A stretch of DNA of 64,000 nucleotides from Parietichytrium sp. I65-24A (Eukaryota > Sar > Bigyra > Thraustochytrida > Thraustochytriidae): the NCBI GenBank assembly GCA_012862575.1, contig BLSF01000028.1, positions 186,001 through 250,000 on the forward strand, read 5' to 3'. The translations under genes were made by a program, and so were the position numbers. Positions 2,852 through 50,200 of this stretch are shown piece by piece. The notes beneath the pieces were generated by a model. That model searched no databases, was not told the origin of the DNA, and saw only the letters and a program-made list of their open reading frames with translations. Each line of letters begins with the position of its first letter. The first letter of the stretch is position 1.

Positions 2852-3912
2852 TGTCAGTGTGTTTCTCTCTTGTTTCCCGTGGAACGAGGACCTTTTGAAA
2901 TGCACAAAATGCACACAGCTTGGCTCAGCAGACTGACAAACAATCTTCATTCTATTTCATTCTTCATCATGTCATCAAAAATGTTATCAATGTTATCAAT
3001 ACTTCTAAAACTTCTCTTACTTGCCATGAATCTCAGCCACGAATTTCGCTCGTAACGTCAGGGTGTCCGTGACGCGATTTACTCCCTGCTTCCCGTCATT
3101 TACTCATATTTACTCTTTAGCTACTCCAGATAATAGAGCAGAGTAGCTATCTAGCTAGTAGCCATCTAACTCTCAGAGGCTCGAACTTTAGCTAACGTAG
3201 GGAAGTAGTAGTCTCCGTGTCAATCACGAATCAGAAAAATACTATTAATCAATGACTACCACTTGGAAAGCCGGTCGACCCATGAATGAACTTGAACGCC
3301 ATAACCCTGACAAAATAACTGAAGAGAACGATCTTGTTACGCCTGCGGATCGAGGAAACTGCACGCAGTCGTAGCAGACACACCAGCCAGAGCGGCGATT
3401 TATAAATACCGGCTTGCTAGCCGAAAAAAAACATATATCCGTTTCTAACTATGATTACTAGTACTAAGTACTACAACTATTTAGATTACATTCGAGTCAA
3501 CAATGCACTTTTGTAGGTGACACGAAGATGCCGCGAATCGTAAATTCGTATTGCCAGTCATCGGTCGTTTCTGCTCAGCGCAAACCCACCTGGCGCTGCA
3601 AAGTTCGCGTTAAGGTCGCCTTTTCCCAAGCGATGCCTTGCCAACGCTACCTTTTTCGACTTCAATGAATTCGTTTTGATCAGCGCTAGTGTTGCCAGTG
3701 TTGCGATGTGACTGGCACATACGATGGCTTGCGGGTATCCGCTCTTCCAGACTCGGACCTGACCATCAGCAGACTATGGTCGTCTTAGAATTGAGATAGC
3801 GTTCTTGCGATTGTGTTGAACGCTGAGTTCGCGATTGATGAGAAGCCGAAATACAACTTCCAGCGAGGAGCTTTGGTTGAGCATGGACGTCTGAAGACGT
3901 GGCTCAAGGATA
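2852..3912. other. Intergenic, no gene seen
   Basis: This lies between the divergent recycling-factor and EGF/7TM genes. It holds AT-rich stretches and CTAGCTAG-like runs near 3150. I see no ORF with coding character and no RNA gene. A missing signal-peptide exon of the next gene could lie in the right half, but I cannot point to one. Confidence 0.4.
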
Positions 3913-5028
3913 ATGTCTTGCCGCTTTGGATGCGGGGCGGACGGGGTATGCGCAGCCAACGGGACATGCTTGTGCAGCGCGAATGGCCAAAGCTTGGAGT
4001 TCAACTTTTGGGCGGGGTCCGTGTCTGAGTCGCCTTGTGATTATAACTCCAGGATCATCACGGTGCTTGATGCAATAGGTGGCGCTCTGTCTCTACTTTG
4101 CTTCGTTTTTCTGATATCAATCACCAACAGGCGCTCGCAGCTGACACGCCGAGCTCCCGCTCTTTGCGGTCTTGTTTGCGGCTTTGTTACTTCCTGTATG
4201 AAAGCGTCAAATCCGGGCAAATACTTATTTTGCATCGACTTCACAACCACCTTCATCTATTCGATTGGGCTGGGATGCTCGTTTGTGGGATGCGCGGTTT
4301 TCCTTCTCAAATACATCAACTTTTTAGAGGTTCAGGCTCGCTGCATGTCAGACAGTGTTTTGCAAAACTATCAGCACAAAATCGTCTTTGTTAGGAAAAT
4401 GCACCGTGTTCTGACCCCGAGCTCGATGGTTGCCTTCCTGCCCTTTACCATTGCGTGCTATCTGGAAGGAGAGCAAAAGTATCACTCGTTTATGACAGGC
4501 ATGCTGCTCTTTACCATCTATCCAATCTTTTTTGGGCTCTTTACGGTGTACATCTTAAAAGAGATCGAGGTCGTCTTTAAACACTGTATGACGCCCTCAC
4601 AAGTCAAGTCGGATGGAAGTTCCAAACTTCAACTCCGGCTAGAAAAGCATTCCAAGGCGCTCAAGCAGGTGTCAAGATTGACCAGCATAATTACGATGAT
4701 AATGGTAAGTTTTGGCTTTAGTATTTATATGCGCAGCTGTTCCGCACCAAAACTTACCAGACTTTGGTTCTCAGATCGCATTTGGGCTCGCGACACTCTT
4801 CTCTCCGCACTTCGTCTTGAGCATGAAGTATATCTTGCCATCGTAAGTCCAGACCAGGTTGTGTTAGAGACAAGACGTTGCAGGTCTAACCGCTAGCTTC
4901 GCAGGTTCAATGTGTCGTGGTTCATTTTCATGCTTGTCGCGACAAACGCAGTGTATAGACACCGAGCTCGCAATTTAGGAAGCCGCTTCTCTTCGATCAC
5001 CCCTACTCGAATTAACTCGCGAGGGTAA
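3913..5028 (+). CDS. EGF-like plus seven-transmembrane protein, receptor-like
   Basis: Three exons: 3913-4704, 4775-4842 and 4905-5028. Both introns are GT-AG (GTAAGT donors) and joining them keeps the frame, giving 327 residues. The N-terminus has an EGF-like cysteine pattern (CRFGCGADGVCAANGTCLC). About seven hydrophobic segments follow: residues ~45-70, 80-97, 105-135, 170-190, 195-220, 255-275 and 285-305. The last is supplied by exons 2 and 3 (YILPSFNVSWFIFMLVATNA). The topology suggests a GPCR-like or other signalling membrane protein, but I do not recognise the family and see no class A landmarks. No signal peptide precedes the EGF module and an in-frame stop lies at 3892, so a 5' exon may be missing. 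The neighbouring carboxypeptidase gene converges with it. Confidence 0.65.
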
Positions 5029-30881: not shown

Positions 30882-32687
30882 TTAATCCAGCTTTTTCCCG
30901 GCCTTGGGCTTCGAGCTGAAAAGAATACTGCTCAGCAACCCATACAAGCCCTTGGCTTTCTGAATCAAATTGGGGTGGTAGGCCATGGTGATGAGGTTCT
31001 GGCCAGCCAAGTGGCAGTCGGAACTGGTTGGGTAGATGAATGGTTCCGGAAGAGCGGTTTGAACACCTGGAATGCGATCTTCCGTGATTGCTTTGACATT
31101 GCAGCAAGCGCGCAGCCCTTCAGGACCAGCAAACTTGTCAAAACCAGAGCCTCCGCGACCTCCAAATGGGAGACTCTGACACAGATAGTTGATGCCAAAG
31201 TCGTTGATGTTTGCCATACCTGCGCGAACGCCACGCGCGATGCGACGTGCCCGTGTAACATCCTTGGAGAATATAGACGAGCCTAGAGCGTAGGAGCAAT
31301 CGTTCACCTGCTCCAACAAGGTGCTCTCGTCCGACCAACTGCGGATGGCCATCACCGGGCCAAACACCTCCTCCTGGGCAATGCGCATGTCCGAGGTAAT
31401 GCCAGTAAGAATCGTTGGCTCGAAAAAGTTTCCTGGTCGAAGCTTTTCGTTGCGCTTGCCCCCGGTCAGCAGTTTGGCACCTTTCGCTACCGCGTCATCA
31501 ACGAGGCTCTGAATGTGGTCAATGGCTCCAGGCATCGTCATCGCACCAAGGTCTATGCCGCTTGCACAGCTCTTGCCCAGAGGCACCCCTTGACGCATTT
31601 GTTGCACGGACTGCAGGGACATTTGCACGAATTGATCATGGATGCGCTCGTGCACAAAAATGCGTTCGATGCCGATACAGTTCTGTCCACAGTTTTGAAA
31701 CACTCCGCGCATTGCGATTGGAACCACGGTCTTGAGGTCAATGTCTTCGCAAAGAATGAAAGGGTCCTTGCCGCCAAGCTCGAGCACCACCGGAGTCAGA
31801 TTCGCCGACGCACCGCGCATCACCAGGCGGCCAACCTTGTCCGAGCCAGTAAAGATGACTTTGTTCACCTTGGACTCCACGAGGGCAGCGCCAGTCTCTG
31901 CCATACCTGTTACCACCTGAACGAGGTCTGGCGAATATCCAGCCGCCTCAATAGCCTTACGCACAGGCCGCAAGAGGTAGTCCGCCGACCAAGACGTGTA
32001 CTCGCTCACCTTGCACACCACGCCGTTTCCGGAGAAGATTCCCGACACGATGTGGTTGAGCAGATTGTGCCCCACGTAATTGAACGGGGCCAGCACTCCT
32101 AACACGCCAAGCGGCTCGAACTCTACACGGACAGACTTGTGCAAGGTCATCAGCCCTTGCCCTCCGCGGCTCTCCGGCTGCAGGATGTCTTCGCCGTAGT
32201 TGATCATCCACCGAATCTTCTCGCACGTTGGCGTGATCTCGCCCAGCACAGCGCACAGCCGCGTTTTGCCAGTGTCCCTGCAGCACACCCTCGCAATGTC
32301 CTCCTGATGCCGCAGGTAATACCCGAGGATCGCGCGCAGCACCGCTCGCCGTTCCGCGAACGTGCTCTTGGCCCATTCCACCTGCGCCGCTTGAGCCTTT
32401 GCCACCAGCTCGTCCACGCGCGACTTTGACATCATCTCCACCTCGCCCAGCCGCTCTGCAGTCGCCGGATCGTAGCATTGCAGCTTACCCGGCCTGTCCT
32501 CCAGCACCAGCTCCATCTTCTCGCGCACTTGGAGCCCCGACGCACTTTCCGAGGTCTCCGTCTCCGTCATTGGCACCTCGATTTCGCCATAGTCGGGGTC
32601 GCTCACGTGCTGCAGCCCCCATCTCCACACGCTGTACGCTGCCCAGCACACCACTCCACACGCCACTGCCGCCGTGCACCACTCCAT
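30882..32687 (-). CDS. Membrane-anchored aldehyde dehydrogenase, ALDH22/Msc7 type
   Basis: An intronless 601-residue protein. Residues ~3-22 are hydrophobic (CTAAVACGVVCWAAYSVW), a probable N-terminal ER signal anchor as in plant ALDH22A1. The ALDH domain begins at ~65 (LQCYDPATAERLGEV). Diagnostic stretches include CCRDTGKTRLCAVLGEI, VRVEFEPLGVLGVLAPFNYV, VIFTGSDKVGRLVM, VVLELGGKDPFILCEDIDL (catalytic Glu303) and QNCGQNCIGIERIFVHERIH (nucleophile Cys337). The Glu-Cys spacing is the canonical 34. The enzyme oxidises aldehydes with NAD(P)+; the physiological substrate of this subfamily is not settled. A CT run upstream reads as a purine leader on the coding strand. Confidence 0.92.
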   Translation of the reverse strand: MEWCTAAVACGVVCWAAYSVWRWGLQHVSDPDYGEIEVPMTETETSESASGLQVREKMELVLEDRPGKLQCYDPATAERLGEVEMMSKSRVDELVAKAQAAQVEWAKSTFAERRAVLRAILGYYLRHQEDIARVCCRDTGKTRLCAVLGEITPTCEKIRWMINYGEDILQPESRGGQGLMTLHKSVRVEFEPLGVLGVLAPFNYVGHNLLNHIVSGIFSGNGVVCKVSEYTSWSADYLLRPVRKAIEAAGYSPDLVQVVTGMAETGAALVESKVNKVIFTGSDKVGRLVMRGASANLTPVVLELGGKDPFILCEDIDLKTVVPIAMRGVFQNCGQNCIGIERIFVHERIHDQFVQMSLQSVQQMRQGVPLGKSCASGIDLGAMTMPGAIDHIQSLVDDAVAKGAKLLTGGKRNEKLRPGNFFEPTILTGITSDMRIAQEEVFGPVMAIRSWSDESTLLEQVNDCSYALGSSIFSKDVTRARRIARGVRAGMANINDFGINYLCQSLPFGGRGGSGFDKFAGPEGLRACCNVKAITEDRIPGVQTALPEPFIYPTSSDCHLAGQNLITMAYHPNLIQKAKGLYGLLSSILFSSKPKAGKKLD

Positions 32688-33876: not shown

Positions 33877-35343
33877 TTAAAGAATATCAGCTGCTGAATC
33901 AGCGATCTCTAGATGCGAGTTTGTCTGAAGAGAACTCAGATCAGTTCGAGGATCGTAGGTGTAGCTTTGCATCGGATAGGAATTGTTTTCGCTAGTCTCT
34001 GTAGCTACTGCATCCAGCACTATGTTAGCTTTGCTACTCTCGCAACCAATTTTCCTCGCTGGCGCAGCAACTGAAGTTGCTGGACCATGTGTCACTGTCG
34101 AGCTTCGCTCTTCGTTTCGGCTTGTAATAGTCCAAAATGAGCTTAACGAGACGCAACATCGCAAGGAGCCAGATTTCGTGCTGGACTCTGAGATGACTCT
34201 TGAGGATCTTAATTGCAGTTTGCGAACAGCCCGTTCTTTACCCCGTTGAATTGCAGCTTCTTTGTATCTTCGTGGCAGGCAGCTGTAAAGCATAGCGACT
34301 TTCAAACTCTTGTTCTTGTATCCATAGATGAGAGGGCTGCACATGCTGCTCGTCGCAGCTGCGACACCAAGAAGTTTTTCTATCGCCTGGAACCCAATGA
34401 ACGTTACTCCACTCGCCAATTTAATCGCAGTGAACAAAAAGTAAATGTAGAGCGGTGTCCACATTATAAGCACACTTGCACTCATGAGCACCATTAGGCG
34501 GGTGCTTTTGTTGTGCTGATGCATTTCATGCTGGGTGAGCGGCTCGACATGTTGCTGAACAGCACGTTTTGAGTTATTGACAATCCGAAGCAAATCACGG
34601 TACACTCTCACAGTGTAGATTATTGGGCCACCAAGCGTCACTGCGCAAACTGTGATCACCTCTCCTGTCCAAAGAGGATTACAAAACGCCCCAGAACAAG
34701 CCATTCGTGCGGACGAAACGCTGGCATAAAATAAGAGGAGAACACTTGATGCCCCCCAAACCCAAAGTGTATACAGTATCACTGCACGTTTTATCGGAAA
34801 GTTCTGATTCTTGATAATGCGCACCTTGCGAGAGTATGCAATGAAGGACAGAGAAAACACCGTCGAATGGCAGGTCATTACAATTCCAAAGCCATAGATG
34901 GCACACCCTGCTGCGCCACCGACCAAGGCTCCATTGTTCAGAAGTGTACCAAGATTAAAGACGACAACAAGAACACCGACCGTAAGATCACTGACTCCTT
35001 GCCCAGCGACAAGAATGTAATGAAGCTGGTGAAGCTTTTCATCTCTCCAAATTCCAATGAGCAAGGCACTGTTTAGTAAAACCACGCAGATACCAAGGAA
35101 TGCCAGAAGGGTATAATACAGGACAAGGTAGCCACTTCCTGAGATTTTCCAGTCGATGTTGCTGCCGACGATTTTGTCGCAATCACAGAGGTCAATTGCA
35201 CTGAGCGTTTCCAAGGTAGCATTGCAAAGAGAATCTGTCATGTTGTCGAGCGAATTCATGTTGAAACACTTGGAAGTTTGGGAACTGCCAACCTCGCGAA
35301 AATTTGATGTACACACTTGTAAACTACAACCTCGTTGAAACAC
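33877..35343 (-). CDS. Rhodopsin-like (class A) G protein-coupled receptor, paralogue 1
   Basis: An intronless 488-residue protein; a start at the ATG at 35259 (MNSLDNMTDSLCNATLET) is also possible. Seven TM helices carry class A landmarks. TM1 has Asn in VVLLNSALLIGIW, TM2 has Asp in GQGVSDLTVGV, and TM3 begins with Cys in GCAIYGFGIVM and ends AYSRK in place of DRY (Arg kept). TM4 has Trp (LYTLWVWGASSVL), the second extracellular loop has Cys (GAFCNP), TM5 has Pro (LGGPIIYTV), TM6 has MWTPLYIYF in place of CWxP, and TM7 has CSPLIYGYKNKSLKVAM, an NPxxY-like end followed by helix 8. The N-terminus has N-glycosylation sequons. The C-tail is long and Ser-rich. The ligand is unknown. It is head-to-head with the paralogue at 36476. 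Confidence 0.85.
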   Translation of the reverse strand: MFQRGCSLQVCTSNFREVGSSQTSKCFNMNSLDNMTDSLCNATLETLSAIDLCDCDKIVGSNIDWKISGSGYLVLYYTLLAFLGICVVLLNSALLIGIWRDEKLHQLHYILVAGQGVSDLTVGVLVVVFNLGTLLNNGALVGGAAGCAIYGFGIVMTCHSTVFSLSFIAYSRKVRIIKNQNFPIKRAVILYTLWVWGASSVLLLFYASVSSARMACSGAFCNPLWTGEVITVCAVTLGGPIIYTVRVYRDLLRIVNNSKRAVQQHVEPLTQHEMHQHNKSTRLMVLMSASVLIMWTPLYIYFLFTAIKLASGVTFIGFQAIEKLLGVAAATSSMCSPLIYGYKNKSLKVAMLYSCLPRRYKEAAIQRGKERAVRKLQLRSSRVISESSTKSGSLRCCVSLSSFWTITSRNEERSSTVTHGPATSVAAPARKIGCESSKANIVLDAVATETSENNSYPMQSYTYDPRTDLSSLQTNSHLEIADSAADIL

Positions 35344-36475
35344 TGCGTGCGCTTCTGTAAAAGACGTTGTGAAATAGTTAACGCGAACTTCGAGTTTTCG
35401 TTTCGAAGTAAATAGATGAGTGATTGGTTTGAATTGGACATTGATTTCAAAGTTTCTATGGTCAATATGTTCGTTCGTTCACAAGCTGAACTTGCTTAGA
35501 GAAAGAATTGAATTGGAGATTACGAAGGGAGATCTCCAGCAAGAACAAATTGGACGAGTGATTGACAACAGACAAAGAGCGTTTGGCAACTCGAGATGGA
35601 CAAATAGTCAATGCCACGAGAAATGCATAAGAGAGTCGTTTAAAATGTGAATTGCAAAGTCGGGCTCTGACAGTCCAACCGAAGGAACATGGACTTGAGC
35701 AATTGACCATTCAACTCCTTGATACGTGCCTTCTAGATCCAGCAAGTAAATTCGTTTATCAAAAATTGCGCAGAAGGAAACGGAACAGGTCAAATTTTGG
35801 ACTTGGTCGAAGGCGTTGGATTTCTTGACACACTTGGTAATTCTGTGTTTTGGCACCATATTATACTTCACACAAACTTCAGCGTACACGCTGAGACGGT
35901 GCACTTGTCGTTTGCAATTTGTGAACGGAAGTGTAATACAAAACTGAAGAATGAAATGAACCCACTATGAATGGCCATGAGCGATCTCTTGGCAATTTCC
36001 AATTACAAAAAGAATACCCGCACATCCGTTGTGACTGCTAGACCGACGGATAAATCACGGGCCCAATGTGTCTTTGCTTTTGTTCTTCGCTGATTACACC
36101 TGGAAGTGCAGCCCTTTTGACCCAAATTCTGACATCAAATCATCACGCTACTTTTCGAAATTTGAAACCATTGACCAATGAGAAAGCGTTTCGAACCTCC
36201 TATAGATAGTACTACACTCTGAAGAAATTAATCTGTGGTGATTGACTCTGTTTTTTAATCTAACGAGTGATATACAATTGTTAAGACCTACTAAATCCTC
36301 GACCCATAGCACTGATTCGGTCGATACTACGCCCTCAGTACGAGTACCTATAACGTCATGGTTTCAATGTATCCCAAGTGCAGTGCACTCAACTTCACCA
36401 GTCCCGAAACGGTGTTCATATTGCAAACAGTTTGCACACTGAGAATTAGGAGGTCAAACCACTTCACACGCAAAG
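35344..36475. other. Shared upstream region of the divergent GPCR pair
   Basis: AT-rich DNA between the two receptor starts. It holds a 98-codon minus-strand ORF (35608-35904) with no recognisable domain, which I do not call. It lacks the purine-rich leaders seen before housekeeping genes. Confidence 0.45.
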
Positions 36476-37855
36476 ATGGACTCTGCAGACGGCGAAATCA
36501 TATGCGGTTTCAAACTGTATGAGAATGAAGTTGCACCTGCTAACAAATTATTCGATTGCGTGAGTGAGTTTCCTGAGGAGAACATTAATTACGACATCTC
36601 GAACCTTGCAGGCGTCATTGCCTATTACAAATGTTTGTCGCTGATCGCGGCATTGATCATCGTTTCCAACGTCAGCATAGTAGTCGGCGTTCTTCGTGAC
36701 AAAAAGCTCCGCAGACAAACATATAATCAGCAGATCGTCGGGCAAGCTCTCACAGACCTTTTTGTTGGTTCCTTGATATTCACATTCCAGTACGGAACAG
36801 TGCTAAATGATGGACGCTTTCTTGGTGCTGGAGTCGGATGTACTTTATACGGATTTGCCATTGTATCCACTTGCCATTGTACAGTTTTCTCGCTCACATG
36901 GATTGCGTACGTGAGAAAGGCAAAAATCCTACAAAATCGTTCAATTTCTGATCGCAAAATTTGGAAGATGTACATATGTTTCGTTTGGGGCGCGACTCTC
37001 TTGATTGGAATTTACTACAGCTTAGTAACGAAATCAAGAATGGTTTCGTCTGGAGCATTTTGCAATCCCATTTACAATTTTGCGGTTCTGGTTCCTTGTG
37101 CTCTGCTGATCATTGTTCCTATCATCTATATCATAGACTCGTACTGGAAGATTCATGTTTTGATGGTGAGCATGAATACCAAAGTCAACGCAATCCAGGG
37201 ACAAGCTACCCCTCCACTTCCTTCTCCAAAGTTACAAACCGGGGATTCGAAAGAGAAAGGAAAATTTCAAAAGGATGAAAGCGGAAACTCTGTTGTTGAT
37301 GCGAAAATGAGAAGAAATGGGCTTTCCATTTTCAGAAGGTCGAGATTGTATAAAAAGCCGAGCTGGAAGACAACCCGATATAAGCAGCAGAACAAAGCAA
37401 CAAAGCTCATGATTTTGATGTGTGCTTCAATCCTTTTTTGTTGGTTGCCACTCTATATTTAGTAAGTTTGGATGTATTTGTCCCACTTTGCTTCGGTGAA
37501 TTGTGAAGATCTGATAGCGTTTATGTGAAGCTTCGCATCTATATTAGTCGACTTGGTAACGCAAGGAGGATTCAAAGGCAACAGCGCATCGGAATTCGCA
37601 CTTGGACTCGCAGCAGGGGCGAGTAGTTTATGCAGTCCTGTCATATACGGTGCCAACAATCGATCGATTCGGCATGCAATGATTTGTGCGTTTCTTCCGA
37701 GATGGTGTAGAGAGAAAGTCAAGGCAGGTCTTTTCAAGTGTAGAAAGAAGCAGGGAAAGGCAACCGCTGCGGGCTATGAATACCGTAACACCAAAACTTC
37801 CGTAACCATATCGAGCACGGGCCGCACGGTATGTGATACGCTGGACGCGCGCTAG
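36476..37855 (+). CDS. Rhodopsin-like (class A) G protein-coupled receptor, paralogue 2
   Basis: Two exons, 36476-37461 and 37531-37855. The donor is TATATTTA|GTAAGT and the acceptor TTATGTGAAG; the joint rebuilds LPLYIYFASILV at the end of TM6, matching LYIYFLFTAI in paralogue 1, and gives 436 residues. Class A features: Asn in IVSNVSIVVGVL, Asp in GQALTDLFVGS, Cys in GCTLYGFAIVS, AYVRK in place of DRY, Trp in CFVWGATLL, Cys in GAFCNP, Pro in LIIVPIIYI, canonical CWLP in TM6, and CSPVIYGANNRSIRHAM in TM7/helix 8. The third intracellular loop is long and basic, about 100 residues longer than in typical short-loop receptors. Intronless paralogue 1 either lost this intron or this gene gained it. 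Ligand and G-protein partner are unknown. Confidence 0.87.
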
Positions 37856-37949: not shown

Positions 37950-39443
37950 TCAAAGGAAGGGTTCGTTGGGGAATCTTTTTTTCTTTTCTTCGAGCATCTT
38001 GCAGCTCAGAAAGAACTCGTCAAAGATGCGCGACCACTTCTCTGCGAGCATGCCGTTTTGGTCAACGACGTCGTTGTAGTCCCCAAGAATGCCGAGTCCG
38101 ACCTTCTTTGGAATACTGACGACAATGGCTACACGAGTGCACACCTCTCGCTCCACAAGCTGCTCGGACTCGTCGGTCTCGAAATAGTTTCCATCTGCCT
38201 CGTCCTCCTCGTTAATAACGCCCTGTTCCCATGCCACGGCCCCTTCGATCACGAGGCCGGTGATGCGCTGAACCATGCCCTTGTCGTGCCCCCCATGGTC
38301 ATCTTCAAACACATGCTGAGTGGTGGACCTAGAGAGGACCCAGGCGGGCGCTTTTCCAAAGGTTCCAAGCGTACTAAAGTCTCCCTTTTTGCACTCCGCT
38401 TTCCTGGCAACTTTCCTCTTCTTCCTCTTCACGTTGGAGTCCTGGTCCTCAATCGTAGACGTGGCTCTCTGTGTTCCCTTGCACAATCCAGGTGTCTGGG
38501 TCTTGGCAACTTTCAGGGTGGACTTGGCGAGCACTTCGCGTTTCCGCGAGATGAGAAAAACCCACTCGGCGTCTTTTTCTGGGGGAGCTCTCTTTTCCAC
38601 ATAGCACATGGTTCCAAAATTGCTGTCGCGCTCCACCGGGAGCGGCATTTTCAATGGCGTGAGAAGAAAGTCGTAATCGATGCCGTATAGTTTGCGAACT
38701 GACGCTTGGTCGGTCCACATGGACCAGTAGAGTTCCTGCACGACGTCTATGCTGACCCCAGAGATGGCAATATCGAGACGGGCTTGGAGGCACTCGCTCG
38801 GGGAGGATATGATCTTATAAGCGCCGGTGACGTTGTATCCTGGCGCGAGCACTTTAAAATGCGCGGGGTCTAGTTTGATTGGCTCCCACTGTTCCTGCGA
38901 AGACCGCGAGAGGAGGCTGTATACGAAAGTTTCGGTAAAGCTAGAGCCTTGCTCGTGAAGGTTTTGTATGGTCTTGGCAGAGCTCGGGATGCCATGATGG
39001 AGCTTGAAACAGCCGCTGAGAAATCTCTTGTGCTCTTCCAGCTGCGCTCGCAAAAGTTCGTTTTCTAGTTTGACATCTGTCTGACCGGCACTCCGCATTT
39101 CGGTCATCTTGAGCTGAAGGTCCTCGATCTTCTTTAAAAAGCTCGCTCGCTCGGAACGCAGGCGCCCATTCTCCTCCTGGAGCTCGGTCAGTTTCATTCT
39201 CCGCTTTTCTCTCGACTTGCGACTCGCGCGCGCAATCTGCTCCCGCCGACGTTTGAGCCACGCTTTGGCATCGAGCTCCTCCTTTTTGTTCTCACAAGCC
39301 GTGTCCGTTGAGGTCAAGTCGCCGAGCTCATCCCCGCGATCGCGTTCGTCTTCTTTCAGTTTCAATGTATCTGCGTCAGCCTCGTCAAAGTAATCCAGAA
39401 AGAACTCGCTGCCCTCCACTTTGAAATCCTGTAAAACATCCAT
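37950..39443 (-). CDS. bZIP transcription factor with START-like C-terminal region
   Basis: An intronless 497-residue protein. Residues ~65-85 are a bZIP basic region (IARASRKSREKRRMK) running into a leucine zipper (LTELQEENGRLRSERASFL, then IEDLQLKM). The invariant basic-region Asn is missing: in the best alignment Ile occupies its place. Oomycete bZIPs are known to include groups with this Asn replaced. After the zipper comes a ~330-residue region, with LDIAISGVSIDVVQELYWSM, DYDFLLTPLKMPL and MVQRITGLVIEGAVAWEQG, ending in MLAEKWSRIFDEFFLS. This resembles START/Bet v1-like lipid-binding modules attached to stramenopile bZIPs, but I hold that part only moderately. A basic stretch (NVKRKKRKVARKAE) near residue 335 could be a nuclear signal. 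Targets are unknown. Confidence 0.75.
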   Translation of the reverse strand: MDVLQDFKVEGSEFFLDYFDEADADTLKLKEDERDRGDELGDLTSTDTACENKKEELDAKAWLKRRREQIARASRKSREKRRMKLTELQEENGRLRSERASFLKKIEDLQLKMTEMRSAGQTDVKLENELLRAQLEEHKRFLSGCFKLHHGIPSSAKTIQNLHEQGSSFTETFVYSLLSRSSQEQWEPIKLDPAHFKVLAPGYNVTGAYKIISSPSECLQARLDIAISGVSIDVVQELYWSMWTDQASVRKLYGIDYDFLLTPLKMPLPVERDSNFGTMCYVEKRAPPEKDAEWVFLISRKREVLAKSTLKVAKTQTPGLCKGTQRATSTIEDQDSNVKRKKRKVARKAECKKGDFSTLGTFGKAPAWVLSRSTTQHVFEDDHGGHDKGMVQRITGLVIEGAVAWEQGVINEEDEADGNYFETDESEQLVEREVCTRVAIVVSIPKKVGLGILGDYNDVVDQNGMLAEKWSRIFDEFFLSCKMLEEKKKRFPNEPFL

Positions 39444-46078: not shown

Positions 46079-47810
46079 TAAGGCCAACCGCCGCTTCGGT
46101 TGCAAAAGTAAGAAACAAAGAATAATCATAACAACGAAATGCAATGCAACAGAGACAACAGAGACATTTTCCAAGCACACGCCCACTTGTGCACCCATCC
46201 ATAATCACAGTCAGTACTTGTACCACCATGCAAAACTACAATACAAGCACACGCAAGCAGTGATGGCAAGTAAACTTCTTCTAGTTCTAGCTAGAGCCAA
46301 CCACTGGCACCATGAGTAGCCAGCCGCAAACGTCCAGTGTCCAGGTCCCACATGGTCCCACGGATGCTGTACAACAGGTTAGCACGTGAGAACGTGAGCA
46401 CGGGAGATTGGTAGTACACACGCAGAGGCAAATAGTGGCACGGTCAAAGCAAAGCGAAGCAAATCGGAGGCAATTGGAAGTTGGAAACAGCGCTGTGTTG
46501 TGAGTGAGAGAGTGAGTGAGCTAGTGAAGTGGTCGATTGCACGTAGCGACAAGCAGGTGAACGATAGGAGTGTTGGGTAGTTGAGTTGGATTGGTTTGAT
46601 TTGGTTTGATCGTGCTGCGGCAGCAGGGCACACGCCACGGAACGAACGTGCTGAGCTAGTACAAGTAAGTTAGTGTGTGTATTTTCTTGTATGGCACAGG
46701 GCGTGAGCTTGGAGGAGACCACTGTGCTGGTTGGTTGGTTTCAATTCTTTAGACCAAGAGAATGGATGAATGAAAGCTGAGAGACAGCGAATTAGTCGAG
46801 GACGATCTTGCCGTCGTCGAAAGTGTTTGGAATGATAAGCTCTCTCAAGACAGAAAATGCAGAAAAGTGCACTTTCCTGACAGTGAACTGTGAATTCCGA
46901 AAATAACGGACCGTGCCACTATTTCTTCTTTTATGATTATGCCAATAATATATCAAATCGGTATGCAAAAGATACCAAAGCATTGATCGCGAGGCAATAT
47001 GGCCAGGTGCCCAGGGACACTTCGAGTTTGGTTGGCTACGTTAGCTCTCCGTGCTTGCGTGTTCATTCCTCCTTGTCATGCTCCGCCAACACTGAGCTCA
47101 GCTCAGCTCAGGCTCTATTAGAGTAGTGTCCTGCACTCGTACCGTTGTGAGTACCACGCACAAGAGGGAAGCAGTGAATCGGTGATCCAGATCACGTGCG
47201 GGCCAAGTAGAATCGGCAGAGCTCTAGCTGGCCTTGGAGACGGCGCATTGGTGACATTGTTAGCAAGGTAGTGGCAGTAGTTGGAAAAGATTTGCCAAGT
47301 GCACATGAGCGCAGTTCTCGGCCCACTTTCGGATTCGTGAAACTCACACAATGCACAATGTGTGCTGCAGTAAGCGAGAAGCGAGATGTAAATAAATTCG
47401 AGAAATTGATGTGCGCGCTCGGCTCGAGAGAAAAAGAAAAAGGTTCTTCGACCTAGCCCATAGTTGAACCGATGCTACTAAAGTGTGTGTGGAGCCACAC
47501 CGACCAAATGGCGCCACACGCCACCATTTCGAGCCTCACGGGTAGGGCGTGGGCTCCAATGGCTAACCAGCAGGGCCGAGCGTACTAGCACAAGGTAAGC
47601 AAGATACCCAACCGACTCGACAGCGCAATGTTTGTACACCACTTGGTGCGCGTTGTGTATCGGTGCAGTAATTGCCCTCTCTCAATCACTCGGTTACCGA
47701 CCAAAATTCCTGCAACCTGTGTGGTGCTTGCTTTGGATCACCGCGATCTTCCAGAATCTGGCGGCCGGTCATCGACAGCAAACCCAAAACTCAAGCACCT
47801 TGCAACAAAG

Positions 47811-47846
47811 CAAGAGCAGCAAGAGCAGCAAGAGCAGCAGCAAGAG
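47811..47846 (+). repeat. AGCAAGAGC tandem run in the DD3-3-like 5' leader
   Basis: About four copies of a 9-bp CAAGAGCAG unit, 45-80 bp before the ATG at 47891. It is probably part of the 5' UTR and has the purine bias of other leaders here. Confidence 0.7.
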
Positions 47847-47890
47847 AATCCAAGTACCATATCAATCCAAGGAGTCATCGTGCAGCAAAG

Positions 47891-50200
47891 ATGAAGGTCG
47901 GCGCAGCAGCAATCCTCGCTGCCATGGTGGCATCTGTGCACGCTGATGTGTACATGCACAACCCTCGCGGAAGCAACAACCGCAACTGCAGAACCGACAA
48001 CAACAAGGAGCGCCGCAACGCTAACCGCCTGTTCGACTCCCAGAACAACGACAACGGTGGCTACTCTTGCCCTCGCGCATTTCCTTTTGACTGCTACGTC
48101 TACGTTGATGACGGTGGCGCTTTCAACAACTGCGTCAACCAGAACAACAATGCCAACAAGGACATGGTCAACAAGGATGGCACACTCGTCAACACAAATG
48201 CCATCAACACCGACATCATGACCTACTACTCTGGCTCGGAGCTCTCCCTGGAGTGGACCGCACAGCACGGTCTCGGAACCAACAGCGAGCTTCACAGTGA
48301 CGTCATCGTGCAGTATGCTTGTGAGGACACCTTGACTGACAACTGCGCAGCCGCAGCTGCTGGAACCTCTCCTTTCGTCGCTGCAGCCGGAACCACTTGC
48401 GGTCTTCGCGACGGAACCCCAGTTCGCAACAAGGACGGTAACAACGGACTCAATGCCGAGGCCACCAACACCATCCCTGACAATGCAAACAGGCAGGATG
48501 ACTACCGCTACGGCCGCCACGAGACCTTCGCATTCTACGACGAGTGCAAGAACCGTGCACGCAACGAAGGTCTCTTCATTGCTGACCAGGACCTCAACGG
48601 CAACGATGCCCGCTACACCCGCCAGAACCCTAACGGCAACAGGAACGGTCTCGAGTGCCCAGAGGAGTCCGAGTACTACCCATACTGGCATTACACGCCA
48701 TGGAAGGATGTGGCAGTCGTCACCAGCGACCTCTCCAAGTGCGCGCTCTACCAGACTGAGTCCGGAAACGTCAAGGCAAAGGGCCGCTGCGAATGCAATG
48801 GCAACTGCAATGGCAACGGCAACCAGCCAAACAACGCAGCTGACTGTGCCAAGGTCACTGGCGCGGAGTGGGTTATGGACCCAGCTCACGGAATCGCCCC
48901 ACCAGAGTGCGTGATCGGACAATACTCCCGCCAAAACCATCTCGGAAACACTGGCGCTGGCCCAAACAACCAGCAGTACAACTGGACCCTCCCAGAAGTG
49001 GCAACGGAGCAGACCTGTGTTCTCCGCATTCGCTACAACATGTCTTCGTACGACTTTGGCGATGTCTCCCGCAACGGAGACAGCACCTACAATGGCAACA
49101 ACTCCCCACTCAAGGACAACGACGAGAGCGAGGCACTCACCTACGTTCCAGTCCAGGGCATGGCTACCGGCGCAACCCTCAGCTTCACCATGAACACTGA
49201 CCAGGTGGCTCGCACCTTCCAGGACCGCTCGTACACCTTCAAGATCTTGCCAAAGCCTGCTGGACGCCGTCTCCAGGGAACCGCAGGAGAATGCGAGAAG
49301 ACCTACAACCTCAACGTTCGTGGCAAGCGCGGAAACATCGTGCAGACCTACCCAGCTGTTGAGTACGACTTTACCCCTGATCACCTTGTCGTCGAGCAGA
49401 ACGACTGCATCCACGTGCAGTGGACCGGATCCGACTACAACCCAAACCGCAACGGCAACAACGGTGAGGGTGGTCCATACGCAGCAAACAACCGCAACAA
49501 GGAAACCAAGTCTGATCGCAGCAACATTGTGCAGATGGACAACGCTGGCAACAACCAGCCGATCATGACCGCCGGCAACTTCAACCTGTTCAAGGGAGCA
49601 GACACTGCCACCTACCAGAAGCTCGCCTTCCTGGAACAGGATATCTCCGATACTTCCAATTGCTTGGACTTTGAGGCTCTTCAAGACAAATTCAACAACC
49701 GTGCTGAGCGTGAGGAGACCCACTTGAACTGCATGAAGCTTTCGGGTGTCAAGACCCCATACTTTGATGCTGGAATCATGTCCGTGGGTGCTGAGGGCGA
49801 CTACAAATATATGAGCACTCGCAACAACAACTTCTCCAACCGTGGCCAGAAGGGTGCCATCAAGGTCATTGCAAAGGGAACCAAGCCAACCGTTCTCCCA
49901 GACGGTTCCACCATCCCTGCAGGCGAGGACCCAGAGACCTACGTTGCCGGAGAGAGCTCCTCTTCCTCCAACGGAATGGCCATCGGAATCGCCGGAAGCG
50001 TTGTTGGAGTGCTTGCAATCGGAGCATTTGTCTACAGCCGCAAAAAGAACGCTGGCTCTGCAAAAACCCAGGAGCCTTACTCCGCGCAGCAGGGCGCAGT
50101 CAGCCCATACGGCGGACAAGGCTACCCTCAACAGCAGCAAGGCTACTCGCAGCAATCTGCCAACCCATACTATGGCAACAGCAACCAACAAAGGTATTAA
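47891..50200 (+). CDS. DD3-3-like secreted or surface glycoprotein
   Basis: An intronless 769-residue protein with a signal peptide (MKVGAAAILAAMVASVHA). The mature N-terminus, DVYMHNPRGSNNRNC followed by ANRLFDSQNNDNGGY, matches the start of the Dictyostelium DD3-3 family, which is also present in diatoms and oomycetes; so does YYSGSELSLEWTAQHGLG. The function of that family is unknown. The ectodomain is Asn/Gly/Cys-rich with several N-glycosylation sequons (NNSPL and NMSSY regions). Near 755 nt before the end is WTLPEVATEQTCVLRIRYNM, a conserved-looking core. Residues ~695-715 are a membrane helix (MAIGIAGSVVGVLAIGAFVY), followed by a short Gln/Gly/Tyr tail (YPQQQQGYSQQSANPYYGNS). Strong preference for C-ending codons suggests high expression. 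Probably a cell-surface or wall-associated protein. Confidence 0.8.
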   Translation: MKVGAAAILAAMVASVHADVYMHNPRGSNNRNCRTDNNKERRNANRLFDSQNNDNGGYSCPRAFPFDCYVYVDDGGAFNNCVNQNNNANKDMVNKDGTLVNTNAINTDIMTYYSGSELSLEWTAQHGLGTNSELHSDVIVQYACEDTLTDNCAAAAAGTSPFVAAAGTTCGLRDGTPVRNKDGNNGLNAEATNTIPDNANRQDDYRYGRHETFAFYDECKNRARNEGLFIADQDLNGNDARYTRQNPNGNRNGLECPEESEYYPYWHYTPWKDVAVVTSDLSKCALYQTESGNVKAKGRCECNGNCNGNGNQPNNAADCAKVTGAEWVMDPAHGIAPPECVIGQYSRQNHLGNTGAGPNNQQYNWTLPEVATEQTCVLRIRYNMSSYDFGDVSRNGDSTYNGNNSPLKDNDESEALTYVPVQGMATGATLSFTMNTDQVARTFQDRSYTFKILPKPAGRRLQGTAGECEKTYNLNVRGKRGNIVQTYPAVEYDFTPDHLVVEQNDCIHVQWTGSDYNPNRNGNNGEGGPYAANNRNKETKSDRSNIVQMDNAGNNQPIMTAGNFNLFKGADTATYQKLAFLEQDISDTSNCLDFEALQDKFNNRAEREETHLNCMKLSGVKTPYFDAGIMSVGAEGDYKYMSTRNNNFSNRGQKGAIKVIAKGTKPTVLPDGSTIPAGEDPETYVAGESSSSSNGMAIGIAGSVVGVLAIGAFVYSRKKNAGSAKTQEPYSAQQGAVSPYGGQGYPQQQQGYSQQSANPYYGNSNQQRY

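What the first reader, a model, noticed from the sequence alone, without database searches (positions are those of the whole stretch)
33877..37855. Head-to-head pair of class A (rhodopsin-type) GPCR paralogues in a protist
Both proteins keep most class A landmarks in order: TM1 Asn, TM2 Asp, TM3 and loop-2 Cys, TM4 Trp, TM5 Pro, CWLP/MWTP in TM6 and SPxxY plus helix 8 in TM7. DRY is reduced to S/V-R-K. Rhodopsin-type receptors are rare outside animals, fungi and amoebae relatives, so a divergent duplicated pair in a probable stramenopile suggests a lineage-specific chemosensory family. They share ~1.1 kb of upstream DNA, and only one has an intron.
Basis: partly seen in the sequence, partly recalled or inferred. 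Interest (0 to 1): 0.75.

Follow-up and report, generated by a model that had tools for sequence, protein, structure and literature searches.

The report
Paired rhodopsin-type receptors in a protist
Two neighbouring genes of a non-animal, non-fungal single-celled eukaryote encode divergent receptors of the same broad class as animal hormone and odour receptors, which matters because this class is usually traced only to the animal-fungus-amoeba branch of life.

Summary
Gene A (33877-35259, minus strand, 460 aa) and gene B (36476-37461 plus 37531-37855, plus strand, 436 aa, one 69-nt intron) are head-to-head paralogues (34% identity, E 1e-67). Both match Pfam 7tm_1 (E 7e-17 and 2e-19) and no other family above cut-off; 0 of 4 reversed or shuffled controls match it. 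N1.50, D2.50, C3.25, R3.50, W4.50, P5.50, Y5.58, W6.48, P6.50, P7.50 and Y7.53 are kept in both; DRY is S/V-R-K, NPxxY is SPxxY, and K7.43 is absent, arguing against opsins. Structure models are too weak to add independent proof. The host eEF1A lacks the opisthokont 12-residue insertion, so it is neither animal nor fungus; stramenopile is likely but rests on recalled 18S features. The pair are the only full class A matches found in the 42.5 Mb genome, so the 'family' is just two. The genome also has about 13 G-alpha genes, 52 RGS and 82 class C matches. Most likely they are G-protein-coupled chemoreceptors, ligand unknown. New members of a known kind; horizontal transfer is not excluded, and their GC3 is unusually low.

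The parts
33877..35259 (-). Gene A, 460-aa class A-type 7TM receptor, no intron; short N-terminus with two N-x-T sites, about 125-aa tail (both read from the sequence)
   Evidence: 7tm_1 E 7.4e-17, residues 63-312, profile positions 2-260 of 260
36476..37461 (+). Gene B exon 1: N-terminus to TM6, with a long third intracellular loop
   Evidence: 7tm_1 E 2.2e-19, residues 65-334
37462..37530 (+). Gene B intron, 69 nt, GTAAGT...AG, between TM6 and TM7
   Evidence: only one of 13 acceptors tried that restores a full TM7 matching A
37531..37855 (+). Gene B exon 2: TM7 (SPxxY), helix-8-like segment, short tail, stop
35260..36475 (.). Shared 1,216-bp upstream region between the two start codons; GC 0.415, longest stop-to-stop frame 118 aa, only short imperfect repeats

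Best explanation
A and B are two divergent class A (rhodopsin-type) G-protein-coupled receptors produced by an old duplication. Inferred mechanism: a small extracellular ligand enters the transmembrane bundle, capped by loop 2, which is tied to TM3 by the C3.25 disulphide. The W6.48/P6.50 switch opens TM6, and R3.50, Y5.58 and Y7.53 form the contact that drives GDP release from one of the cell's many G-alpha proteins. RGS proteins end the signal. Loss of D3.49 and of an acidic 6.30 removes the usual ionic lock, so basal activity may be high or regulated otherwise. Shown: genes, homology, residues, partner families in the genome. Inferred: surface location, ligand, G-protein coupling, shared regulation.
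For: 7tm_1 is the only Pfam family above cut-off for either protein. phmmer against PDB: the 60 shown of A's 137 hits (best E 5.7e-8, NPY2R) and the 60 shown of B's 64 (best 3.2e-8, NPY2R) are all class A receptors or fusions of them. The A+B profile gives 18 hits at E up to 1e-6, all 18 class A, best E 4.5e-11. Landmark residues and near-equal spacings. Signalling partners: G-alpha, 24 matches, 17 over cut-off, about 13 genes by my count; RGS, 52 of 52 over cut-off; one arrestin-like gene with both arrestin domains. Foldseek with two weak models: of the 50 hits listed for each, 50 and 47 are class A, the other 3 class B PTH1R.
Against: DRY is reduced to SRK/VRK and NPxxY to SPxxY, and 6.44, 7.45 and 7.49 depart from the usual residues (usual residues recalled). 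Both AlphaFold2 models are poor (mean pLDDT 43.7 and 50.7), TM-scores are only 0.2-0.6, and Foldseek also uses amino-acid similarity, so the fold is not independently shown. A simple hydropathy scan found only 6 (A) and 5 (B) segments over its threshold. No expression, ligand or coupling data.
Confidence: 0.75

Rival explanations
1. The pair (or its single ancestor) was acquired by horizontal transfer from an animal, fungus or amoeba and then diverged, so it says nothing about the age of class A receptors.
For: GC3 is 0.473 and 0.474, below all 21 other ORFs measured (0.561-0.726) and below the longest ORFs of 17 receptor loci (0.524-0.698). Only two such genes were found in a genome rich in class C receptors.
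Against: Best PDB matches are spread over unrelated subfamilies (NPY2R, S1PR, 5-HT, D2, tachykinin) at similar weak scores, so there is no close donor family among solved structures; fungal and amoebozoan receptors could not be compared. The two copies share only 34% identity. GC3 lies near the GC of the intergenic stretch (0.415), as weak codon selection would also give.
Confidence: 0.3
2. They are opsin-like light receptors, as suggested for diatom rhodopsin-like GPCRs.
For: PDB rhodopsin entries appear among B's matches (best E 3e-7); a blue-green-light-upregulated diatom gene is reported in PMC7335047 (passages).
Against: Position 7.43, the retinal lysine in opsins, is Ala in A and Gly in B.
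Confidence: 0.03
3. They are non-signalling 7TM proteins (or cAMP-receptor-like proteins) that resemble class A by chance or through common descent of the wider GPCR clan.
For: Signature motifs are eroded; cAMP receptors share D in TM2 and the loop cysteines (PMC3251606, passages).
Against: No Dicty_CAR match was listed at E up to 1 for either protein, while the genome has a separate Dicty_CAR-matching frame, L053. R3.50, Y5.58 and Y7.53 are kept in both after deep divergence. 0 of 4 controls match 7tm_1.
Confidence: 0.12

Closest known systems
Class A / rhodopsin-family GPCRs (Pfam PF00001, 7tm_1) of animals
   Same: Significant 7tm_1 match (profile positions 2-260 of 260 in A, 2-227 in B), N1.50, D2.50, C3.25 and loop 2 Cys, R3.50, W4.50, P5.50, Y5.58, WxP in TM6, P7.50, Y7.53
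   Different: S/V-R-K instead of D/ERY, SPxxY instead of NPxxY, no close match to any one subfamily among PDB sequences
Metazoan-like Rhodopsins of choanoflagellates and an ichthyosporean (PMC12716839, passages and section 7)
   Same: Divergent 7tm_1 receptors; the choanoflagellate ones have lost E/DRY and the retinal lysine
   Different: Those lie in close relatives of animals, and the choanoflagellate ones are nearest opsins by the authors' account; here the host is not an opisthokont and no subfamily is near
Fungal Rhodopsin-family receptors (Krishnan 2012, PMC3251606; class 15 of PMC12842992; passages)
   Same: Class A receptors in microbes; chytrids are also reported rich in class C homologues
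   Different: The 12 fungal sequences of 2012 are reported to keep D/ERY; the host here is not a fungus
Diatom GPCR rhodopsin-like proteins, Seminavis robusta (PMC7335047, passages)
   Same: Reported rhodopsin-like GPCRs in a stramenopile (ten putative, seven in one tandem-duplicated family)
   Different: Sequences not available to me, so relationship untested; the authors propose light sensing, which position 7.43 argues against here

Membership tests
Class A (rhodopsin-like) GPCR | Significant match to 7tm_1 over the curated cut-off | tested here: met
   62.1 and 70.4 bits, cut-off 30.5; 0 of 4 controls
Class A (rhodopsin-like) GPCR | Seven transmembrane helices in the class A fold, with helix 8 | tested here: inconclusive
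   Models show seven helical regions and a short helix after TM7 but have mean pLDDT 43.7 and 50.7; hydropathy scan 6 and 5 segments
Class A (rhodopsin-like) GPCR | Asp in TM2 and cysteines in TM3 and loop 2 | tested here: met
   D91/D94, C119/C122, loop 2 C193/C196; the bond itself not testable
Class A (rhodopsin-like) GPCR | E/DRY at the end of TM3 | tested here: not met
   SRK in A, VRK in B; only R3.50 kept. PMC12716839 lists it among characteristic motifs but accepts choanoflagellate Rhodopsins that lack it
Class A (rhodopsin-like) GPCR | CWxP in TM6 | tested here: inconclusive
   Met in B (CWLP); A has MWTP, so WxP without the Cys
Class A (rhodopsin-like) GPCR | NPxxY in TM7 | tested here: not met
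   SPLIY and SPVIY: P7.50 and Y7.53 kept, N7.49 replaced by Ser
Class A (rhodopsin-like) GPCR | Activates heterotrimeric G proteins | not testable with these tools
   Partner genes are present, coupling unknown
Opsin | Lys at 7.43 for retinal | tested here: not met
   Ala in A, Gly in B
cAMP-receptor family (Dicty_CAR, PF05462) | Match to PF05462 | tested here: not met
   No match listed at E up to 1 for A or B
Aminergic class A receptors | Asp at 3.32 (recalled) | tested here: not met
   Ile in both

The most novel reading that the evidence does not exclude
Class A receptors were already present before the split between the animal-fungus-amoeba lineage and the stramenopile lineage, that is, near the last eukaryotic common ancestor. 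They were lost or shrunk in many protists, and this pair is a surviving, divergent branch that signals without DRY and NPxxY.
Probability: 0.3. Interest if true: 0.7.

Novelty: new member of a known kind. Interest (0 to 1): 0.45.

Why it matters
A 2025 survey infers from its detections that metazoan-like Rhodopsins predate the amoebozoan-opisthokont split (PMC12716839, section 7). A well-supported pair in a non-opisthokont protist, if the host is a stramenopile and the genes were inherited vertically, would push that date back further; if transferred, it would be an unusual receptor transfer. The pair also gives two natural receptors that keep R3.50/Y5.58/Y7.53 without DRY or NPxxY, a useful test of which parts of the class A switch are essential. 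If the host is a thraustochytrid, relatives can be transformed in the laboratory (recalled), so function should be testable.

Tried and rejected
Chytrid-fungus origin: considered because chytrids are reported to have class A and class C receptors (PMC3251606, PMC12842992, passages); rejected because the genome's eEF1A (L022) lacks the 12-residue insertion present in all 5 chains whose alignments were shown (yeast and mammal by entry code, recalled; no non-opisthokont eukaryote chain was shown as a control). The insertion is described as opisthokont in PMC3938643 (passage).

More paralogues: protein search with A found none beyond A and B (a 27%-identical stretch at E 0.3 was set aside). The 7tm_1 search listed three other matches: L003 just over the cut-off (31.1 bits against 30.5) and two below it. 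Scanned against all of Pfam, L003 fits Frizzled best (E 5e-12; 7tm_1 then 23.8 bits, below cut-off), L004 fits 7tm_2 best (E 4e-6; 7tm_1 below cut-off), and the third place (read as L052) fits Frizzled best (E 6e-9; 7tm_1 below cut-off). So I do not count them as class A.

Relatives elsewhere: 0 relatives in viral contigs (84 pattern matches) and 0 in genome contigs (27 pattern matches), each scan with two short peptide patterns. No eukaryote collection is available, so no tree was possible.

Tandem-ACP PUFA synthase as a thraustochytrid marker: 11 PP-binding matches but no tandem ACP array, so no support for a DHA-producing thraustochytrid.

Shared promoter motif: two direct and one inverted short imperfect repeats in the intergenic region, likely chance. 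RNA families: 0 matches in the window at gathering score.

Structure: two predictions, both low confidence; Foldseek results given little weight.
Full report
What is there. Two genes lie head to head in the window. Gene A is on the minus strand, 35259 to 33877, 460 aa and intronless. Gene B is on the plus strand, exons 36476-37461 and 37531-37855, 436 aa, with one 69-nt GTAAGT...AG intron. Of the 13 acceptors tried with this donor, only the one ending at 37530 gives a complete TM7 matching A. The start codons have 1,216 bp between them with no obvious gene (longest stop-to-stop frame 118 aa). A and B align over 392 columns with 134 identities, E 1e-67. Downstream of B lies a convergent reading frame on the minus strand (37950-39443) without a Pfam match at E 0.001. 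Downstream of A lies an aldehyde dehydrogenase gene (30882-32687, minus strand).

Family. Against all of Pfam at E up to 1, A matches only 7tm_1 (7.4e-17). B matches 7tm_1 (2.2e-19) plus two matches far below their cut-offs. Of six reversed or block-shuffled versions made, four were scanned: reversed A, reversed B and one shuffle of each; 0 of 4 match 7tm_1, and one has a sub-threshold Ferlin_C match. Against PDB sequences, A had 137 matches at E up to 0.1, of which 60 were shown and all 60 are class A receptors or constructs of them. B had 64 at E up to 0.001, and all 60 shown are class A. A two-sequence profile gave 18 at E up to 1e-6, all 18 class A, best D2 dopamine receptor at 4.5e-11. 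The hits spread over peptide, lipid, amine and opsin receptors, so no animal subfamily with a solved structure is close.

Residues (Ballesteros-Weinstein numbers assigned by me from the motifs, their roles from general knowledge). Kept in both: N1.50, D2.50, C3.25, R3.50, W4.50, a loop 2 cysteine, P5.50, Y5.58, W6.48, P6.50, P7.50, Y7.53. Distances are nearly the same in A and B: C3.25 to R3.50 is 25 in both, D2.50 to R3.50 is 53 in both, W4.50 to P5.50 is 44 in both, and N1.50 to D2.50 is 28 and 29. Changed: 3.49 Ser/Val, 3.51 Lys, 6.30 His/Gln, 6.47 Met in A, 7.45 and 7.49 Ser. Absent: Asp at 3.32 (Ile in both) and Lys at 7.43 (Ala/Gly). Blocks conserved between A and B include SGAFCNP around the loop 2 cysteine, TCHxTVFSL in TM3 and the TM6 end PLYIYF, which may be a signature for finding orthologues.

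Structure. AlphaFold2 with three-row alignments (A plus the two exons of B as separate rows) gave mean pLDDT 43.7 (full length) and 50.7 (7TM part). Both show helices in a seven-helix layout and a short helix after TM7, but at this confidence the fold is not established. Only 2 and 8 hits passed E 0.001, TM-scores were about 0.2-0.6, and amino-acid similarity contributes to these scores. I treat this as weak support only.

Host. The window is part of a 42.5 Mb, 172-contig genome. Its eEF1A lacks a 12-residue insertion present in all 5 PDB chains whose alignments were shown (yeast and mammal by entry code, recalled; no non-opisthokont eukaryote was shown as a control). That insertion is described as an opisthokont feature (PMC3938643, passage). 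So the host is not an animal or fungus. The 3' end of 18S at the end of contig C16 has a sequence I recognise from memory as stramenopile-like, perhaps labyrinthulomycete; this was not tested. Enrichment of G proteins and of three GPCR domains (class C by their InterPro numbers, recalled) has been reported for thraustochytrids (PMC6050695, passages), which fits the genome described next. No tandem-ACP PUFA synthase was seen. Exact placement remains open.

Signalling context in the same genome. G-alpha: 24 matches, 17 over cut-off. Eleven places cover most of the model (one, on C43, with stops inside) and at least two more genes are split on C45, so about 13 genes by my count. RGS: 52 matches, all over cut-off, some of them two or three in one frame. 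Class C 7tm_3: 82 matches, 81 over cut-off, some of them fragments of one gene. Dicty_CAR: 2 matches, one of them (L053) a separate frame and the other inside the L004 frame. Arrestin_C: 1 match, in a gene that also has Arrestin_N. Class A: A and B are the only full matches. A third 7tm_1 match just over the cut-off (L003) and two below it belong to long frames that fit Frizzled (two) or 7tm_2 (one, L004) better. The receptor system of this cell is therefore large and dominated by class C; class A is a minor component, not an expanded family. By the tool's own statement matches are exon by exon and counts of large families are lower bounds.

Composition. GC3 is 0.473 (A) and 0.474 (B), against 0.561-0.726 for 21 other ORFs (10 in the window and 11 of 13 loci; 2 loci gave no frame on the strand read) and 0.524-0.698 (mean 0.600, SD 0.043) for the longest ORFs at 17 of 20 fetched receptor loci; 3 loci had no ORF of 400 aa and were dropped. 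Not every one of these ORFs was checked to be the gene's own frame. Low GC3 may mean weak expression, because it approaches non-coding GC (0.415 in the intergenic stretch), or foreign origin. It counts against a simple vertical story and is reported as such.

Mechanism. I commit to class A-type GPCRs that sense a small extracellular ligand within the bundle and activate one or more of the host's G-alpha proteins. The transmission residues (W6.48, P6.50, R3.50, Y5.58, Y7.53) are intact in both copies despite only 34% identity, which suggests selection on the switch. The missing acidic partners of R3.50 suggest a looser inactive state. Ligand class is open; amines of the classical type and retinal are disfavoured by 3.32 and 7.43. 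The common upstream region may permit co-regulation, but no clear shared motif was found.

Comparison with the literature. PMC12716839 (passages and section 7) accepts Rhodopsins that match 7tm_1, have helix 8 and show characteristic motifs, including choanoflagellate ones without E/DRY, and dates them before the amoebozoan-opisthokont split. PMC3251606 (passages) placed the origin at the opisthokont ancestor and found none in Alveolata. PMC7335047 (passages) reports rhodopsin-like GPCRs in diatoms, so class A-like claims in stramenopiles are not new in principle. PMC10445921 (passages) uses 'rhodopsin-like' for receptors with GpcrRhopsn4/Lung_7-TM_R (ITR/GPR108-type) domains in amoebae, a different thing. 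De Mendoza et al. 2014, cited in these papers, was not held and I have not seen it. I found no report of 7tm_1 receptors in labyrinthulomycetes in searches (listings, plus passages of PMC6050695, PMC10445921 and PMC12258536); the open-licence library is incomplete.

Verdict. A real, well-supported observation; a new, divergent member pair of a known receptor class in an unexpected host. The strong reading (class A near the eukaryotic root) is possible but untested, with ancient horizontal transfer the main rival.

Noticed in passing
Genome G000, e.g. C71:6970-155242, C19:466591-493933, C85:42942-57166: Class C (7tm_3) receptors are strongly expanded: 82 matches, many in local clusters.
   Followed up: partly
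L026 (G000:C23:388566-388922): A 576-aa frame with six hydrophobic segments by a simple scan, followed by an RGS domain, like a 7TM-RGS fusion.
   Followed up: partly
L025 (G000:C37:114083-114499): An RGS domain behind what look by eye like cyclic-nucleotide-binding repeats in one 579-aa frame.
   Followed up: no
L003, L052 (G000:C11, C119): Long frames with a cysteine-rich N-terminal part and a Frizzled-like 7TM region: Frizzled E 5e-12 and 6e-9. Of interest because Frizzled is said to have possibly arisen in the ancestor of opisthokonts and amoebozoans (PMC12716839). L004 (C74) is similar in layout but fits 7tm_2 best.
   Followed up: partly
window 3895-4896 (+): A 333-aa frame with a short cysteine-rich start and, by eye, several hydrophobic segments, possibly another 7TM protein; no Pfam match at E 0.001.
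   Followed up: partly
window 47672-50200 (+) and 47738-50191 (-): Very long open frames on both strands (842 and 817 aa); the plus-strand one has, by eye, a C-terminal hydrophobic segment and no Pfam match at E 0.001 for the part scanned. The minus one is probably a shadow of codon bias.
   Followed up: no
G000:C7:19811-27643 and C66:7956-22997: Two giant open frames (4460 and 5583 aa) with 3 and 5 separated acyl-carrier domain matches, probably FAS/PKS megasynthases.
   Followed up: no
window 33877-37855: GC3 of both receptor genes (0.47) is below every other ORF measured; cause unknown.
   Followed up: partly
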